Virus record (IMG/VR): IMGVR_UViG_3300031670_000016
Coordinates: 1 to 23,097 of that record
Length of the DNA stretch: 23,097 nt
Reading direction: 5' to 3' (one strand)
From: a virus
The notes below the pieces were generated by a model, which saw only the letters and a list, made by a program, of their open reading frames with translations, did not search any database and had not been told where the DNA came from. The number at the start of each line of letters is the position of its first letter. Positions within the stretch are counted from its first letter, which is position 1. A program made the translations under genes and the position numbers. Of this stretch, positions 5,771 to 16,860 are shown piece after piece.

Positions 5771-5830
5771 AATGGCTGGATTCCTTTTGTTTGAATCAAT
5801 CGTGCCAAGGATCGATCATTGATGGCGGTT

Positions 5831-5868
5831 GAACCTCCCCACGGCTAAAGCTGGCGGATTCCAGACTG
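5831..5868. repeat. Degenerate hairpin resembling an IS200/IS605 end
   Basis: The segment contains CCCCACGGCTAAAGCTGGCGG followed by ATTCCAGACT. It closely resembles the CCCACGGCTAAAGCCGTGGG hairpin found at many IS200/IS605 (TnpB) element ends. The right arm has changes, so only about six of eight pairs form, one of them G-U. No transposase or tnpB frame is present beside it. It lies between two convergent genes and could be a scar of an insertion or act as a weak bidirectional stop. The resemblance is from memory and not from a search. Confidence 0.4.
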
Positions 5869-5873
5869 CCTTA

Positions 5874-6065
5874 TTACTCGGCGATTATCAATGAGAGCAG
5901 CTGGCTTCTACGGATCAGAGTGCGACCGCCGATTTTGTACCGTGTCAATCGCTTCTGTGTCAGGAAACGTCTTATTGAAACTTCGCTCAGCGTAGTAAAA
6001 ATCGCGGCCTCTTTGACGTTCACAAAATCTGAGGCTGTCCTGCTAACCTGATCCGTTTTAGCCAT
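5874..6065 (-). CDS. MerR/excisionase-type helix-turn-helix protein
   Basis: The 63-residue product has the winged-helix pattern of HTH_17/excisionase proteins: FVNVKEAAIFTTLSEVSIRR (about residues 14-33) and then FLTQKRLTRYKIGGRTLIRR, where the last part is the wing, ending in SQLLSLI. Such proteins bind DNA as phage excisionases, directionality factors or small repressors. The ATG at 6065 has a perfect AAGGAGG 8 bases upstream on the minus strand. A promoter-like TTGACA/TATACT pair lies further upstream. It runs against the late genes, so it is probably expressed independently of them. Whether it acts on excision or on transcription cannot be read from the sequence, and no integrase is present in the window. 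Confidence 0.82.
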   Translation of the reverse strand: MAKTDQVSRTASDFVNVKEAAIFTTLSEVSIRRFLTQKRLTRYKIGGRTLIRRSQLLSLIIAE

Positions 6066-6089
6066 CGGTAATCCTCCTTGAAGAACTCA

Positions 6090-6120
6090 AGTATAGTGTG
6101 AGATACCCAGACAATGTCAA
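6090..6120 (-). promoter_or_regulatory. Putative promoter of the helix-turn-helix gene
   Basis: On the minus strand a perfect -35 box TTGACA (6120-6115) and a -10 box TATACT (6095-6090) are separated by 19 bases, about 24 bases before the start codon. The spacing is longer than the ideal 17, as in promoters that MerR-family activators twist into shape. A perfect inverted repeat TGACA-gca-TGTCA style site (6142-6154) lies upstream and could be an operator. Confidence 0.45.
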
Positions 6121-6222
6121 ATAAAATACAGTCCAGGAATATGACAGCATGTCAACATCTAGGGGCGTTGTCGGCCGCCCGAGCCCAGAAAATAAAAGTT
6201 CTATCCCCACAGTTATTTCAGC

Positions 6223-6333
6223 CTATTTTTGATTCGCCAGCCAATAATCGGCTAATTCATGCGCCAGCACTCCAATAGCTTTGGACGATCCATCAGACGC
6301 ATCGCTCACGTCCTCTTTTGACTTGCCAGCCAT
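6223..6333 (-). CDS. Possible 36-residue protein after the immunity gene
   Basis: This short minus-strand frame overlaps the 3' end of the immunity gene in another frame. The ATG at 6333 follows GGAGAAG on the minus strand; an internal GTG (GTGA) overlaps the immunity stop and is an alternative start. The product begins MAGKSKEDVSDASDG and ends HELADYWLANQK. Position and coupling favour a real gene, but it is short and matches no family I recognise. Confidence 0.3.
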   Translation of the reverse strand: MAGKSKEDVSDASDGSSKAIGVLAHELADYWLANQK

Positions 6334-6554
6334 TCGAGCTGCTTCTCCGCAAGCTGCCTCTGTATATCTCGTTCCTTGCCAGCTAATCCCGTGCATGACC
6401 ACACCAGGCAAGCAATCCACGCAATGACCGTCCAGCCGAGCAGAAGATTCAAAACGAAGATCGCCAGTTTGGATTGATGGCCCCGTGATTGAGCTACTAT
6501 CGAAGGAAGGAAGTACGCGACAACTGCGAATACCGCAATGGCGCCTGGGTCCAT
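6306..6554 (-). CDS. Superinfection immunity family membrane protein
   Basis: The 82-residue product matches the superinfection-immunity family (PF14373; phage T4 Imm is the namesake). Two hydrophobic helices are visible: about residues 5-21 (AIAVFAVVAYFLPSIVA) and 30-55, the second containing the family hallmark IFVLNLLLGWTVIAWIACLV. They are followed by a charged cytoplasmic tail rich in Lys, Gln and Glu. Such proteins sit in the inner membrane and hinder DNA entry by related phages, although many family members are untested. The ATG has AAGGAGGTG 6-7 bases before it. A longer frame over the same bases (to 6561) is not membrane-like and was not chosen. It is probably co-transcribed with the repressor gene at 6573-6722. 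Confidence 0.85.
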   Translation of the reverse strand: MDPGAIAVFAVVAYFLPSIVAQSRGHQSKLAIFVLNLLLGWTVIAWIACLVWSCTGLAGKERDIQRQLAEKQLEWLASQKRT

Positions 6555-6572
6555 CGGACACCTCCTTTCCGT

Positions 6573-6722
6573 TCAGTACTTGATGCCTTTTCTTTCGGCC
6601 ATGTCCCGCACGGCCAATTCCAGAACGTGAGCTTTACCTATACCGAGGTTTTTTGCGAGTGCTGCCATGAGGTGCAATACAGTCACGCTGAGTCTTAGGT
6701 CTGCCCGCTTCCGTTCGGTCAT
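6573..6722 (-). CDS. Small ribbon-helix-helix repressor-like protein
   Basis: This 49-residue protein has the size and pattern of Arc/CopG ribbon-helix-helix repressors: a basic beta strand (KRADLRLSV), helix A (TVLHLMAALAKNLG), a turn (IGKA) and helix B (HVLELAVRDMAERKG). I prefer ATG 6722 over ATG 6740 because the predicted transcription start lies near 6742 and the stretch 6724-6740 is a copy of the upstream operator repeat. The longer form would add MSGNIT. It is the first gene of the minus-strand unit that continues into the immunity gene, so it probably represses itself and that gene. RHH identity rests on pattern only. Confidence 0.7.
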   Translation of the reverse strand: MTERKRADLRLSVTVLHLMAALAKNLGIGKAHVLELAVRDMAERKGIKY

Positions 6723-6723
6723 C

Positions 6724-6762
6724 GTAATATTACCCGACATTTGCCGTGATTTTACCCGTCAT
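6724..6762 (-). promoter_or_regulatory. Two 17-base operator-like repeats
   Basis: On the plus strand GTAATATTACCCGACAT (6724-6740) and GTGATTTTACCCGTCAT (6746-6762) agree at 14 of 17 positions and are 22 bases apart, two helical turns. The first holds the perfect palindrome GTAATATTAC. One copy covers the -10 box of the minus-strand promoter and the other its start point, which is where an autorepressor would bind. Confidence 0.55.
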
Positions 6763-6777
6763 TCTCCACAAAATCAA
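6749..6777 (-). promoter_or_regulatory. Putative promoter of the repressor-immunity unit
   Basis: The minus strand shows TTGATT (6777-6772) and TAAAAT (6754-6749) with an ideal 17-base spacer. The predicted transcript begins near 6742, giving a leader of about 20 bases to the ATG at 6722. The -10 box lies inside one operator-like repeat. The promoter points away from the capsid genes that start at 6839. Confidence 0.5.
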
Positions 6778-6838
6778 TAGTCAATAGCGTAATTGCTGCA
6801 TTTTGCTTTGCGGAATCCTGTTAGGTTTTCGTTGTCAC

Positions 6839-12924: not shown

Positions 12925-14322
12925 ATGGGCTCAACCCCGAGTTCTTTACCGCTAAGCGATATCGTTGTCGTGAACGTTTCGGTTGCCCAGGGCTCCGTTG
13001 CGCCGCGACCATTCAATCAGGGCCTCATTGTGGGCCCGTCCACCGTCATTCCATCATATGGAGCGAACGCGCGCATTCGCCAATATCCCTCTCTCGCTGC
13101 GATGCTGACGGATGGATTCGTTGACACGGACCCTGAGTACATTTCCGCCGGCCTGTATTTCAGTCAGGTTGCAGTTCCGCAATTCGTGTGGATAGGACGG
13201 CAGGACCTTACAGCCATCCAAACGGCGATTCCCCATAGTGGATCGGCGGGTACCGGATACGCAGTCGGAGATACTGTTACGCCGACGCAGGCTGGTGCGT
13301 CAAATGCAAAACTGGTCGTTCTTACTGTAGATGCTGGCGCGGTCCTAACATTGGGAACCACCCCTGGCAATCAGGGGACCGGATATTCCGTTGCCACGGC
13401 GTTGCCGACAACGACGAGTGGAGCAGGAACCGGCCTGGAAGTTGATATTACGGCCATCGGTGAAACTTTGCTCCAGGCTGTCGAGGCGTGCAGCCTGGTG
13501 AACCAGCAATGGTATTGCTTCATGTGCTGTGGGGCGGTAGACGCCGATCATCTCGCTTTGGCCGCATGGTCCTCGGCGAACTGGATGACGGCCATGTATT
13601 TTGGCTCGACTGCCGACAGCTCTATTCCAGCCGGAACGACCGGCAATCTTGCCCTCGAGATGCAGGCGGCGAAGTATCGTGCCTACCTGAGCTATGACAC
13701 CACGCAGACGGGGGACGAGTTCCCGAATAACATCTATGCAGCCGCCGCGATTATCGGGGCCGCGTGCGGTCTGAATACTGGGCTGGCCGGGAGCGCCTTT
13801 ACCCTCAATCTCAAGTCCCTTGTAGGCATTGCGCCGGAACCTCTCACGCAGACTCAATATGCGGCCATTGCGGCGGCGAACTGCAATACATGCGCGAGCT
13901 TTGGACCATATGACGGATACATAGTTTCGGGAATCCTCTCAAGCGGAGAATTCTTCGATCAGATTCTCGGCCGCGCCATGCTTGTCAACCTGATTCAAAC
14001 CAATCTGATGAATTTACTTGTCAGTGTACCGAAGATTCCGCAAACGGACCCAGGAGAGCATCAGCTTATCGCTCAAGTGGAAAACTCCTGCGCGCAGGAA
14101 GCCTTGATCGGCTATATCGGACCCGGCGTGTGGGAAGGCGCGCCCGTCCTGAATTTGACCACCGGCCAAGCGTTGCCTCAAGGATATTTTGTGCAAGCGC
14201 AGTCCTTTACGCAGCAATCTTCGGGAGATCGCGCGGCGCGTAAGGCCATGACAATTTACGCCGCGATTCTTGAGGCAGGCGCGGTGCATAGCGTTATCGT
14301 TAACGTGAACGTGCAGTTATAG
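12925..14322 (+). CDS. Tail sheath protein (DUF3383) with inserted beta domain
   Basis: This 465-residue protein is the contractile sheath. The N-terminal DIVVVNVSVAQGSVAPRPFN then QGLIVGPSTVIP, the FVWIGRQD strand and the C-terminal SSGDRAARKAMTIYAAILEA with GAVHSVIVNV agree with DUF3383 (PF11863). Residues 104-178 look like an inserted domain: two GTGY motifs (GTGYAVGDTV and GTGYSVATAL) about 42 residues apart with Thr/Gly/Val strands and a closing GLEVDITAI. The ribosome site AAGGAG lies 6 bases before the ATG. The insert is known from other structural proteins and would probably face outward on the sheath. Confidence 0.9.
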   Translation: MGSTPSSLPLSDIVVVNVSVAQGSVAPRPFNQGLIVGPSTVIPSYGANARIRQYPSLAAMLTDGFVDTDPEYISAGLYFSQVAVPQFVWIGRQDLTAIQTAIPHSGSAGTGYAVGDTVTPTQAGASNAKLVVLTVDAGAVLTLGTTPGNQGTGYSVATALPTTTSGAGTGLEVDITAIGETLLQAVEACSLVNQQWYCFMCCGAVDADHLALAAWSSANWMTAMYFGSTADSSIPAGTTGNLALEMQAAKYRAYLSYDTTQTGDEFPNNIYAAAAIIGAACGLNTGLAGSAFTLNLKSLVGIAPEPLTQTQYAAIAAANCNTCASFGPYDGYIVSGILSSGEFFDQILGRAMLVNLIQTNLMNLLVSVPKIPQTDPGEHQLIAQVENSCAQEALIGYIGPGVWEGAPVLNLTTGQALPQGYFVQAQSFTQQSSGDRAARKAMTIYAAILEAGAVHSVIVNVNVQL

Positions 14323-14332
14323 GGGAGAGCAA

Positions 14333-14797
14333 ATGTTCGGACCTGTTCAGACTACATACAGCTTCAGGGATTTGACTGGAGTTCTAATAAACCCCATCCT
14401 CGACATTCCATATCAGCTTGTCGGCGGAAATATCGGCCTCGGCTCAATCACCATAAAAATGTTGACCGAGCGAGCCGACGTGCTGGTCGGAACCGATGGA
14501 AGTGTAATGCCCATGTATATCGCCGGCGCGAACGCCGAGATGACCATTGAAGTGCAGCAAACCTCCGACCTGCACCATGCACTTATAGATCTCTACAATC
14601 TCCTCGTGACTGCGGCGGACTGGAACAACGACGTGAGCTTCTGGGCGGCAACGACTATCAGCCTGCGAACGATCACGGACGGGACAGGCCACTACTTGAC
14701 CGGAGTCATGCCTCGAAAGATCCCCGACAAGCCCTATGCTGCAAAAGGGCAAAACGTCACGTGGAACTTCCTGGCGGCGAATGCGATAACGCAATGA
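14333..14797 (+). CDS. Tail tube protein (DUF3277-like)
   Basis: The 154-residue product is the inner tube subunit, which forms hexameric rings inside the sheath. Features include YSFRDLTGVLINPILDIPYQ (about residues 9-28), SITIKMLTERADVLVGTDGS, an AEMTIEVQQTSDLH strand, and DGTGHYLTGVMPRKIPDKPY near the end, consistent with DUF3277 (PF11681). The start has GGGGAG 7 bases upstream. It directly follows the sheath gene and precedes the chaperone pair, the standard myovirus order. Its stop overlaps the chaperone start by ATGA. Confidence 0.86.
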   Translation: MFGPVQTTYSFRDLTGVLINPILDIPYQLVGGNIGLGSITIKMLTERADVLVGTDGSVMPMYIAGANAEMTIEVQQTSDLHHALIDLYNLLVTAADWNNDVSFWAATTISLRTITDGTGHYLTGVMPRKIPDKPYAAKGQNVTWNFLAANAITQ

Positions 14798-15267
14798 CGC
14801 CAAAAACAAAAATCGTGGAGTTTTCCGGCACGCGCTATCAGGTGCGCAAGCTCTCTCCGGACGTGGGATCGTTCATTCTCGGCAAGGCCCTGATGGTCGG
14901 AATAAAGGCTTCCGAGGAAAGCGCCGCAAGCAACGGAGATGCCGTGGCCGCGCCGGACAAAGCCGCACCGGAAGACATGGCGCGCGCGATCGCCTTTTCG
15001 TTCGTGTTCCGTGGGGCCGATTTCGAGACGCATCGCTTCGTGCAGGGAAAATGCCTTGCGGTGTGCTCGAGGATGGAAAGCAAGGATGGCGGCCCCGAAC
15101 TGCCCATGCCAATAGTGAACGATGCGGGCGCTTGGGCTATCCCTGAAATACGGGACGATGTCGCGCTGGTGATGCGACTAGAAGTTGAAGTGCTGGCATT
15201 CAATTTCACGGATTTTTTCGCCGTAGGGGGCCTGAATGCGATGGCGGGTCAGGTTTCAGCGGCATAG
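14794..15267 (+). CDS. Tail assembly chaperone, short (gpG-like) form
   Basis: This 157-residue protein occupies the place of gpG between tube and tape measure. It opens MTPKTKIVEFSGTRYQVRKL, has an Ala/Asp-rich middle (residues 45-70) and closes with LEVEVLAFNFTDFFAVGG. Chaperones of this kind bind the tape measure protein and recruit tube subunits and are not in the finished virion. The ATG overlaps the tube stop. A T TTT TTC slippery site (15213-15219) lies at codons 140-142, from which about 77 more residues can be added in the -1 frame, giving the longer gpGT-like form. Confidence 0.8.
   Translation: MTPKTKIVEFSGTRYQVRKLSPDVGSFILGKALMVGIKASEESAASNGDAVAAPDKAAPEDMARAIAFSFVFRGADFETHRFVQGKCLAVCSRMESKDGGPELPMPIVNDAGAWAIPEIRDDVALVMRLEVEVLAFNFTDFFAVGGLNAMAGQVSAA
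15213..15219 (+). promoter_or_regulatory. Programmed -1 frameshift site T TTT TTC
   Basis: In the chaperone frame the bases read T TTT TTC over Phe-Phe codons, the ideal X XXY YYZ pattern, so both tRNAs can re-pair after a -1 slip. The -1 frame is then open to 15452 and encodes a T-like domain. A run of five G follows at 15226-15230 and may help slippage or pausing. Confidence 0.7.
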
Positions 15268-15452
15268 AGTTTCCGCCGAATCTGGATGGCTTTCTGTGGC
15301 GTCCCGTTCTTGCGGGGATGTGGATGCAGAAAGAAACGTTCGATGGAACCTACGATTTCTCGGACTTGGTCGCGGTAAATGACGTGCTCGACTGGAAAGA
15401 AGAGAACGAGCGGCGATACATAGAAAATGCCCAATCAGAACGTCATCGATGA
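15219..15452 (+). CDS. Tail assembly chaperone, frameshift extension (gpT-like)
   Basis: After the slip at 15213-15219 the -1 frame runs 77 residues to a TGA, giving a 219-residue fusion with the first 142 residues of the short form. The extension has GIEFPPNLDGFLWRPVLAGM then WMQKETFDGTYDFSDLVAVN and DVLDWKEENERR, a Trp/aspartate-rich helical pattern typical of the T part of gpGT chaperones. No good independent start is present apart from internal ATGs, and the frame overlaps the tape measure start by 26 bases. Without it, 15268-15426 would be an unexplained gap in a packed operon, which supports the call. Confidence 0.78.
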   Translation, partial: RRRGPECDGGSGFSGIEFPPNLDGFLWRPVLAGMWMQKETFDGTYDFSDLVAVNDVLDWKEENERRYIENAQSERHR

Positions 15453-16860
15453 ATATCTCGTCAAGCTTGGATTTCAATCCGACTCGGTAAGTTATGCCCG
15501 CTTCGCGGCAGACCTGCGTGATGCTTCCGCCCTCGTTGACAACCAATTCCTTCGCATGGGCAAAAGCATTCTGGAATTCCAGTCCGCAATCATTGGAGCG
15601 TTTGCGGCTACGGGTGCCGCTGCTATTGGGATCGTCGACAAGACGGCGATGGCGGACCAGGAATACCGCTTGCTCGCTCTGCACATGTACACATCCCTGC
15701 CTGTAGCCCGCGAGCTGAAGGTTGCCCTAGACGCGCTGGGACAGCCGCTGGAAAACGTGATGTGGGACCCGGAACTTGCCGGACGTTTCCACCAGCTAGT
15801 GCAGGATCAGAGGACACTTACGCAGCAGTTGGGGCCGGGATTCGAGAATCAAATGCTCAGGATTCGCGACGTGCGTTTCGAGTTCACGCGCCTGGGAGTT
15901 GAACTGCAATACCTGTCAATGAATGTTGTTCAGGACCTCGCAAGGGCATTCGGAACGACCATTGATGGCCTGCTAGAAAAGATGCGCCATTTCAACGCGT
16001 GGTTTATCGCCAACATTCCATTTTTCGCGCAGGTTATTGCCACGAAACTGAAGCCCGTCTTGATCGACGTTTGGAACGTTCTTAAAAGCACGGGAGAGCT
16101 AATCAAGCAAATCGGCATCGACATATCGCAGCTTCCCATACAGAAGTTCATTCACGATATAGCCACATCCGTGATGGGACTGAACTCTATCGAGAGCGCC
16201 TTTGCCAAGATGGCCAGAGGCGACTTCAAGGGTTCATGGTCGGACCTGAAAGAGGCCAATAAACTGCTGGGTCCCGAAGGACAAGGACCGGCCCTATCGA
16301 TCCTTCCAGGTTCTCCCATTGATGTTCTGCTTCATGGGCAAACGCACGTTTCTAAATCCTCGATACAGGCTGACATCGTTTCTCAGGCGAAAGCGCTCGG
16401 AGTGGCTCCGGAGTTGGCCCTTGCTGTCGCTCAAATAGAAAGCAATTTCCAGCAATTCGATAAATCCGGAAATGTGCTGACCTCGAATGTTCCAGGCTCT
16501 CATGCGGCGGGGATATTCCAGCTTCAGCCGGATACCGCGAAGATGCTAGGCGTCAATCCGTCCAGCATTGGAGAAAACGTATATGGAGGCGTGAAATATT
16601 TGAAGCAGCTCCTCGATAGGTATCACGATGTCGGTGCCGCTCTTCAGCACTACTACGGAAGCAAGAATCCCGCCGAGAATGCGGCATATGCCAATCGCGT
16701 TCTCCAGGCCGAAGCGACTATTAATGTCACGGTGAATGTGGCAAGCAACGCCGATCCTAAAAAGATAGCCACGGAAACGGCCAAGGCGGTCGCGGCCACT
16801 CAGAACCAACGCACCCAGAGGAACATCGCCGAATTCCAGACGCCCGGATGGAGCTATTAG
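15427..16860 (+). CDS. Tail tape measure protein with lytic transglycosylase domain
   Basis: This 477-residue protein sets tail length and probably helps DNA entry. Residues 1-300 are mainly helical, with hydrophobic stretches at 52-72 (SAIIGAFAATGAAAIGIVD) and about 192-206 (WFIANIPFFAQVIAT) that could insert into membrane. Residues 313-417 form an SLT/GH23 domain: ALAVAQIESNFQQF with the catalytic Glu338, then HAAGIFQLQPDTAKMLGV, NVYGGVKYLKQLLDRY and ALQHYYGS. This would open peptidoglycan during infection. At 477 residues it is short for a tape measure, implying a short tail. The ATG lies within the end of the chaperone extension, with a weak ribosome site. Confidence 0.88.
   Translation: MPNQNVIDEYLVKLGFQSDSVSYARFAADLRDASALVDNQFLRMGKSILEFQSAIIGAFAATGAAAIGIVDKTAMADQEYRLLALHMYTSLPVARELKVALDALGQPLENVMWDPELAGRFHQLVQDQRTLTQQLGPGFENQMLRIRDVRFEFTRLGVELQYLSMNVVQDLARAFGTTIDGLLEKMRHFNAWFIANIPFFAQVIATKLKPVLIDVWNVLKSTGELIKQIGIDISQLPIQKFIHDIATSVMGLNSIESAFAKMARGDFKGSWSDLKEANKLLGPEGQGPALSILPGSPIDVLLHGQTHVSKSSIQADIVSQAKALGVAPELALAVAQIESNFQQFDKSGNVLTSNVPGSHAAGIFQLQPDTAKMLGVNPSSIGENVYGGVKYLKQLLDRYHDVGAALQHYYGSKNPAENAAYANRVLQAEATINVTVNVASNADPKKIATETAKAVAATQNQRTQRNIAEFQTPGWSY

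What the first reader, a model, noticed from the sequence alone, without database searches (positions are those of the whole stretch)
14794..15452. Programmed -1 frameshift in the tail assembly chaperone
The chaperone frame contains T TTT TTC (15213-15219) in the correct phase. The -1 frame is open to 15452 and encodes a 77-residue T-like domain that no ordinary start codon explains well. This fills the 160-base gap before the tape measure gene. G/GT pairs made by frameshift are well known in phages; the site and partner here are directly visible.
Basis: partly seen in the sequence, partly recalled or inferred. Interest (0 to 1): 0.55.

Follow-up and report, generated by a model that had tools for sequence, protein, structure and literature searches.

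The report
Ribosomal frameshift in phage tail chaperone
This contractile-tailed phage very probably makes a second, longer version of a tail-building helper protein by having ribosomes slip back one base, a well-known phage trick, here with a slip signal kept in nearly all relatives examined and apparently backed up by a small RNA hairpin.

Summary
The finding holds. The tail chaperone frame (14794-15267, 157 aa, Pfam Phage_TAC_15) carries T TTT TTC at 15213-15219 in phase; the -1 frame runs to 15452 and adds 77 residues (219-aa fusion). No ATG/GTG/TTG occurs in that frame before 15318. The extension matches Pfam DUF6889, 'unknown function', as do all 54 aligned extensions at E <= 1. Among 86 distinct loci, 82 show a chaperone ORF in the -1 relation, all 82 with an in-phase heptamer; three more have it on broken or truncated contigs, one rearranged contig does not (85 of 86). 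Codon shuffling gives an in-phase TTTTTT in 1.9%. In a second panel 12 of 13 have an in-phase heptamer. Two relatives, Mulock and Magia, are already annotated with this frameshift, and the Magia announcement says so: a new member of a known kind. Added here: DUF6889 is the frameshift-encoded T-position domain of TAC_15 chaperones, and over 55 diverse loci a hairpin starting about 8 nt after the site pairs better within than between loci (Z -8.5; eight controls -3.8 to +0.95). Frameshifting is inferred, not measured.

The parts
14794..15267 (+). tail assembly chaperone, zero-frame product (gpG position), 157 aa, Pfam PF21822 Phage_TAC_15
   Evidence: E 5.6e-7, above curated cut-off; relative L009 starts MTPKTKIV like it; start overlaps the stop of the upstream gene at 14797
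15213..15219 (+). slippery heptamer T TTT TTC, in phase for -1 frameshifting
   Evidence: in-phase site in 85 of 86 distinct loci
15219..15452 (+). -1 frame extension, 77 aa, Pfam PF21829 DUF6889 / phrog_4364 (gpT position)
   Evidence: 54 of 54 aligned extensions match DUF6889 at E <= 1
15220..15263 (+). predicted stimulatory RNA hairpin; core stem 15227-15235 with 15249-15257, 7 nt after the heptamer
   Evidence: 15219-15300 folds at -32.9 kcal/mol, z -1.77; arm-swap interaction for the window -6.5 kcal/mol; supported statistically over 55 loci, not in this locus alone
15427..16860 (+). tape-measure-position protein, 477 aa, with an SLT transglycosylase domain; its start overlaps the end of the -1 frame by 26 bases
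   Evidence: phrog_12506 tail length tape measure, E 1.2e-4; PF01464 SLT, E 9.4e-10
14333..14797 (+). KPP10_Orf10 / phrog_280 structural protein, probable tail tube, the presumed partner of the T domain
   Evidence: (PF11681, E 5.9e-28); tube role inferred from its place after the sheath
12925..14322 (+). tail sheath (DUF3383)
   Evidence: phrog_205, E 5.1e-83; PF11863, E 3.6e-50; shows a contractile tail

Best explanation
A -1 programmed ribosomal frameshift of the phage G/GT kind. Most ribosomes end at 15267 and make the 157-aa chaperone. A minority, reading GAT TTT TTC with tRNA-Phe in both P and A sites, slip one base back on T TTT TTC, helped by a hairpin whose core stem begins 7 nt downstream, and go on in the -1 frame to 15452, making a 219-aa chaperone-T fusion. 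By analogy with lambda gpG/gpGT the chaperone part binds the tape measure protein and the DUF6889 part recruits tail tube subunits; neither is expected in the finished virion. Shown here: the site, its phase, the open frame, protein conservation of the extension, conservation of site and frame relation, and statistical support for the hairpin. Inferred: that shifting happens, its efficiency, and the binding roles.
For: Site, phase and frames. Families: 50 of 52 chaperones match TAC_15 at E <= 0.1, 54 of 54 extensions match DUF6889 at E <= 1. Conservation: 82 of 86 distinct loci with the -1 relation, all 82 with an in-phase heptamer; 85 of 86 after reading broken contigs: TTTTTTC 67, TTTTTTT 8, TTTTTTG 7, TTTTTTA 1, GGGAAAT 1, AAAAAAA 1. 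Chance 1.9% by codon shuffling. Second panel 12 of 13. 64 of 85 have no ATG/GTG/TTG between site and the first PV, 78 of 85 no ATG; in the slightly different stretch, 53 and 71 of 85. Median extension 77 aa. Hairpin: 5'-arm pairing probability 0.80 at offset 10, control mean 0.47; arm-swap Z -8.5, 0 of 2000 permutations. Mulock and Magia records carry the same frameshift, as does the Magia announcement PMC7883833 (one passage read). The TAC model is nearest to a PICI-like protein 5ir0 (Z 7.7) and the HK97 tail chaperone 2ob9 (Z 6.4, rmsd 4.1, 85 residues), next entry 2.8. Lambda roles: passages of review PMC5009743.
Against: Nothing measured. L135 (Edwardsiella ZHS) and L122 (below the Pfam cut-off) keep both frames without a strict heptamer; L105 has the extension without chaperone or site, on a rearranged contig. 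The arm-swap controls are not centred on zero: the one at -250 has Z -3.8 and also 0 of 2000 permutations, those at +60 and +100 have Z -2.9 and -2.5. A second fold peak lies at +70 over the conserved RPVxAG codons, and with only 11 single-linkage groups the peak at the site was not clear. So the hairpin is supported rather than proved; for the window alone the fold z is -1.77. Fold-search scores for the chaperone are under 8 and the extension has no PDB fold match at E <= 0.001.
Confidence: 0.93

Rival explanations
1. The second frame is a separate small gene with its own start (ATG 15318 or 15324, 44 or 42 aa), translated by re-initiation after the chaperone stop.
For: Eight of 19 annotated phage records opened call a separate or partial gene there; ATG 15318 exists in the window. 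21 of 85 loci do have some ATG/GTG/TTG between site and PV.
Against: The conserved part starts upstream of 15318 (FLxRPV). 64 of 85 loci have no common start codon between site and PV. It does not explain the in-phase heptamer in 85 of 86 loci or the -1 relation in 82 of 86.
Confidence: 0.04
2. RNA polymerase slippage on the T run makes mixed mRNAs, rather than ribosome slippage.
For: T6 to T7 runs in most loci; A8 in L072.
Against: The run here is T6; a passage of PMC3711429 gives T runs above 8 for transcriptional realignment. Relatives use mixed heptamers G GGA AAT, A AAT TTT and C CCT TTT in the same phase, which suit tandem tRNA slippage better. The hairpin lies where ribosomal stimulators usually do (usual spacing recalled).
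Confidence: 0.03
3. An assembly or sequencing error, or a decayed gene, splits one reading frame in two.
For: Only indirect: L016 appears to carry such an error.
Against: The same -1 relation in 82 of 86 distinct loci, among them a prophage-like locus in Clostridium puniceum (L102), and in phage records.
Confidence: 0.005

Closest known systems
Phage lambda gpG/gpGT -1 frameshift (Levin 1993; Xu 2004, 2013, 2014: seen only as citations in the review PMC5009743, of which passages were read)
   Same: chaperone frame with a slippery site near its 3' end, -1 extension, position before the tape measure gene (lambda gene order recalled)
   Different: different protein families (TAC_15 and DUF6889), contractile tail, T TTT TTC in place of lambda's G GGA AAG (lambda site recalled), and a hairpin conserved in many relatives
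Klebsiella phage Mulock and Burkholderia phage Magia tape measure chaperone frameshift products (MN098327, NC_070954)
   Same: homologous gene pair in the same place, same -1 shift, annotated as frameshift product
   Different: their sites are the stack G GGA AAT TTT TTG and C CCT TTT; Mulock's extension is 32-39% identical to the window's, Magia's was not compared directly
HK97 tail assembly chaperone (2ob9)
   Same: nearest named phage chaperone by fold, Z 6.4 over 85 residues
   Different: 12% identity, weak score, not among the PDB sequence matches
E. coli dnaX -1 frameshift signal (a passage in PMC3711429, describes heptamer, SD-like element and hairpin)
   Same: heptamer followed by a hairpin
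   Different: no excess of SD-like sequence upstream here (12 of 85, within the control range)

Membership tests
[quoted passage not shown]
phage G/GT-type tail chaperone frameshift | open, protein-coding -1 extension without its own start codon ahead of the conserved part | tested here: met
   window; 64 of 85 loci
phage G/GT-type tail chaperone frameshift | gene order tail tube - chaperone/extension - tape measure | tested here: met
   tube identity inferred; same order in annotated relatives such as Mulock, EKP1 and Magia
phage G/GT-type tail chaperone frameshift | conservation of the shift in related phages | tested here: met
   85 of 86 distinct loci; 12 of 13 in a second panel
phage G/GT-type tail chaperone frameshift | fusion protein made at a low, balanced ratio | not testable with these tools
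   needs a reporter or mass spectrometry
phage G/GT-type tail chaperone frameshift | chaperone part binds tape measure, extension binds tube protein | not testable with these tools
   inferred from lambda only
Pfam Phage_TAC_15 | score above curated cut-off | tested here: met
   30.6 bits against 22
Pfam DUF6889 | score above curated cut-off | tested here: met
   27.8 bits against 23.9
HK97-type tail chaperone fold | fold match to 2ob9 | tested here: inconclusive
   VIA Z 6.4, rmsd 4.1, 85 aligned; Foldseek E 2.4

The most novel reading that the evidence does not exclude
Pfam DUF6889 is the frameshift-only T domain of TAC_15 tail chaperones in a broad group of myophages and prophages of Proteobacteria and Firmicutes, and its expression is set by a two-part signal, an X XXY YYZ heptamer plus a covarying hairpin about 8 nt downstream; the lineage without an obvious hairpin (mostly enterobacterial phages) instead stacks three overlapping heptamers (GGGAAATTTTTTG), so the ratio of the two chaperone forms is held while the signal is rebuilt.
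Probability: 0.5. Interest if true: 0.4.

Novelty: new member of a known kind. Interest (0 to 1): 0.27.

Why it matters
It gives a likely role to a Pfam family of unknown function (DUF6889) and says why gene callers miss it: of 23 phage records opened, 4 had no annotation; of the other 19, 9 leave the frame unannotated, 8 give a separate or partial gene (one as NTP pyrophosphohydrolase) and 2 draw the frameshift. The hairpin offers natural frameshift signals for measuring how phages set the ratio of the two chaperone forms. The mechanism itself is long known.

Tried and rejected
Upstream Shine-Dalgarno-like stimulator: 12 of 85 loci, within the control range of 0.04-0.37. Rfam on 15100-15460: no match up to E 1. 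Fold search for the 77-aa extension (model pLDDT 88.3, three helices) and PDB sequence search with both profiles: nothing usable. NCBIfam: nothing above cut-off for the three proteins given. DUF6889, DUF3383 with frameshift, Klebsiella phage Mulock and Phage_TAC_15 in the paper library: no paper. Searches joining phage tail frameshifts with stem-loop, hairpin or pseudoknot listed reviews, prediction tools, genome reports and others; of all papers listed I read only passages of PMC10885494, PMC5009743, PMC3711429 and PMC7883833 and one part of a section of PMC5009743, so I do not claim that phage tail hairpins are unreported. Whole window against phage records by near DNA match: none; chaperone protein against phage records: none.

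Errors of mine, corrected: the site picker took a wrong TTTTTTG in L044, fixed; one search's fold profile and its heptamer tally still used it (1 of 55 loci). One search read L120 and L121 on the wrong strand; one search repeats them the right way round. Single-linkage clustering gave only 11 groups and no clear fold peak at the site (mean z -0.68, se 0.52); greedy clustering at 70% gave 55. Rows dropped: 21 of 107 loci as duplicates over a 320-base stretch, near-duplicates remaining until the 70% step; the viral scan kept 80 of 91 confirmed relatives; of 17 phage records I opened 10, of 37 I opened 13 others. L009 was found through the chaperone and is outside the 86.

Full report
What is there. 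The window is a 23,097-base virus record from a contractile-tailed phage: terminase, portal, capsid, DUF3383 sheath, KPP10_Orf10 structural protein, chaperone, tape-measure-position protein with an SLT domain, Dit-like protein and baseplate genes lie on the + strand. The chaperone runs 14794-15267 and matches Pfam Phage_TAC_15 (5.6e-7). GAT TTT TTC at 15211-15219 gives T TTT TTC in phase. The -1 frame, open 15189-15452, adds 77 residues. These match Pfam DUF6889 and phrog_4364. There is no ATG, GTG or TTG in that frame before 15318.

Conservation. A search with the extension alone gave five loci, two of them identical to the window there. A four-member alignment found 80 viral loci (91 confirmed, 80 kept) and 16 loci in bacterial genomes; ten phage records were added. 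After removal of 21 duplicates of 107, 86 distinct loci with the window remained. In 82 a chaperone ORF lies in the -1 relation, and all 82 have an in-phase heptamer with YYY = AAA or TTT. Twelve of the 82 also have an out-of-phase one in the overlap: nine are the same homopolymer run read one base on, three lie elsewhere (L015, L053, L106). The other four loci: L023 starts inside the gene, L016 has a frame error, L104 is chimeric, and each still has T TTT TTC in phase; L105 is rearranged, without chaperone or site. So 85 of 86: TTTTTTC 67, TTTTTTT 8, TTTTTTG 7, and one each of TTTTTTA, GGGAAAT and AAAAAAA. Codon-shuffled ORFs have an in-phase TTTTTT in 1.9%. L009, outside this count, also has T TTT TTC in phase.

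A second panel tests distance. Of 13 further phage records (Escherichia, Salmonella, Yersinia, Hafnia, Citrobacter, Acinetobacter, Burkholderia, Elizabethkingia and Edwardsiella phages and the unassigned WC36-2), 12 have an in-phase heptamer, with the sequence changed: the stack GGGAAATTTTTTG, A AAT TTT with or without G GGA AAT, or C CCT TTT. Edwardsiella ZHS has only GAT TTT ATG. A Pfam scan of 398 genomes of one phylum gave four matches: one is L102's own genome; L120 and L121 have an in-phase site; L122, below the cut-off, has only GAT TTT TCG. The site thus changes in sequence while its phase and place are kept, which speaks for tandem tRNA slippage and against polymerase slippage.

Is the -1 frame a protein? 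Yes. The 54-member alignment has invariant D42 and G43 and near-invariant P29, V30, G33, W35, T44, Y45, D49 and L50, and all 54 match DUF6889 at E <= 1, best 2.1e-20, while the chaperones are less alike (mean column identity 26% against 44%; 50 of 52 match TAC_15 at E <= 0.1). In 64 of 85 loci no ATG/GTG/TTG lies between site and the first PV (53 of 85 in the slightly different stretch). In those loci, and in the window, a frameshift is the plain way for the conserved start of the domain to be translated.

RNA signal. In 55 loci under 70% identical, 50-nt windows starting right after the site fold better than dinucleotide shuffles (mean z -0.90; control mean -0.22, Mann-Whitney p 4e-5). A second peak at +70 (-0.99) covers the conserved RPVxAG codons and may come from the protein. 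The 5' arm is focused 8-15 nt after the site (pairing probability up to 0.80; control mean 0.39-0.48, highest control 0.62 over that stretch). Swapping arms between loci costs 2.8 kcal/mol on average (Z -8.5, 0 of 2000 permutations), and 34 of 55 loci are better than their swaps by over 2 kcal/mol after centring. Eight control positions gave Z from -3.8 to +0.95 and 8 to 15 such loci of 54 or 55; the control at -250 also had 0 of 2000 permutations, so the test has a background, probably shared base composition within a genome. The window is among the stronger loci (-6.5, seventh of 55). In the Acinetobacter phages the stem GGGCTG/CAGCCC of L131 and L133 is GGACTG/CAGTCC in L127, a change on both sides. 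Relatives with the stacked site show no comparable stem by eye. I take the hairpin as well supported for the group and probable for the window, whose own fold z is -1.77.

How it likely works. As in lambda, a majority short chaperone and a minority fusion; the chaperone part binds the tape measure protein and the extension brings tube subunits (review PMC5009743, passages read). The chaperone model (pLDDT 93) has its best two matches in a PICI-like protein and the HK97 tail chaperone (Z 7.7 and 6.4; next 2.8), suggestive only. The extension (pLDDT 88) is three helices without a PDB match. GeneTack authors measured 6% and 7% shifting in two HK97-like chaperone genes (PMC3711429, passage); I have no figure for this one.

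Known or new. Mulock and Magia records carry the frameshift product in the homologous gene, and the Magia announcement states it (passage). I file this as a new member of a known kind. Not found in the library by my searches are the reading of DUF6889 as the frameshift-encoded T-position domain and the covarying hairpin in this group; few of the listed papers were opened.

Noticed in passing
window 5771-6802: About 1 kb inside the head gene cluster has no clear + strand gene but small minus-strand ORFs: 6306-6554 matches Imm_superinfect (superinfection immunity, 9.5e-21) and 5874-6065 is near HTH_17 (below cut-off), so perhaps a cargo insert in the structural operon.
   Followed up: partly
L010, L013, L015, L017-L019, L123-L126, L128, L129: These phages (mostly enterobacterial) have three overlapping in-phase heptamers, GGGAAATTTTTTG, and no obvious downstream stem in those folded.
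   Followed up: partly
L019 2537-2689 (MK448230), also MK422455 and MK416019: The DUF6889 frame is annotated as 'NTP pyrophosphohydrolase' in these records, with no support seen here.
   Followed up: no
L105 about 2340-2501; L104 about 2350: Two rumen MAG contigs join the extension to unrelated upstream DNA; L105 may join it to a tape-measure-like start. Misassembly or rearrangement.
   Followed up: partly
L072 around 1440: One locus has an A8 run (CAA AAA AAA GAG) in place of the T run, where polymerase slippage could also act.
   Followed up: no
window 15289-15339 and the same place in relatives: A second peak of RNA folding at +70 from the site over the conserved RPVxAGMW codons; probably protein-driven.
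   Followed up: no
L135 (Edwardsiella ZHS) 700-800: Keeps both frames in the -1 relation but has only GAT TTT ATG, so a one-tRNA slip or separate start may be used.
   Followed up: partly
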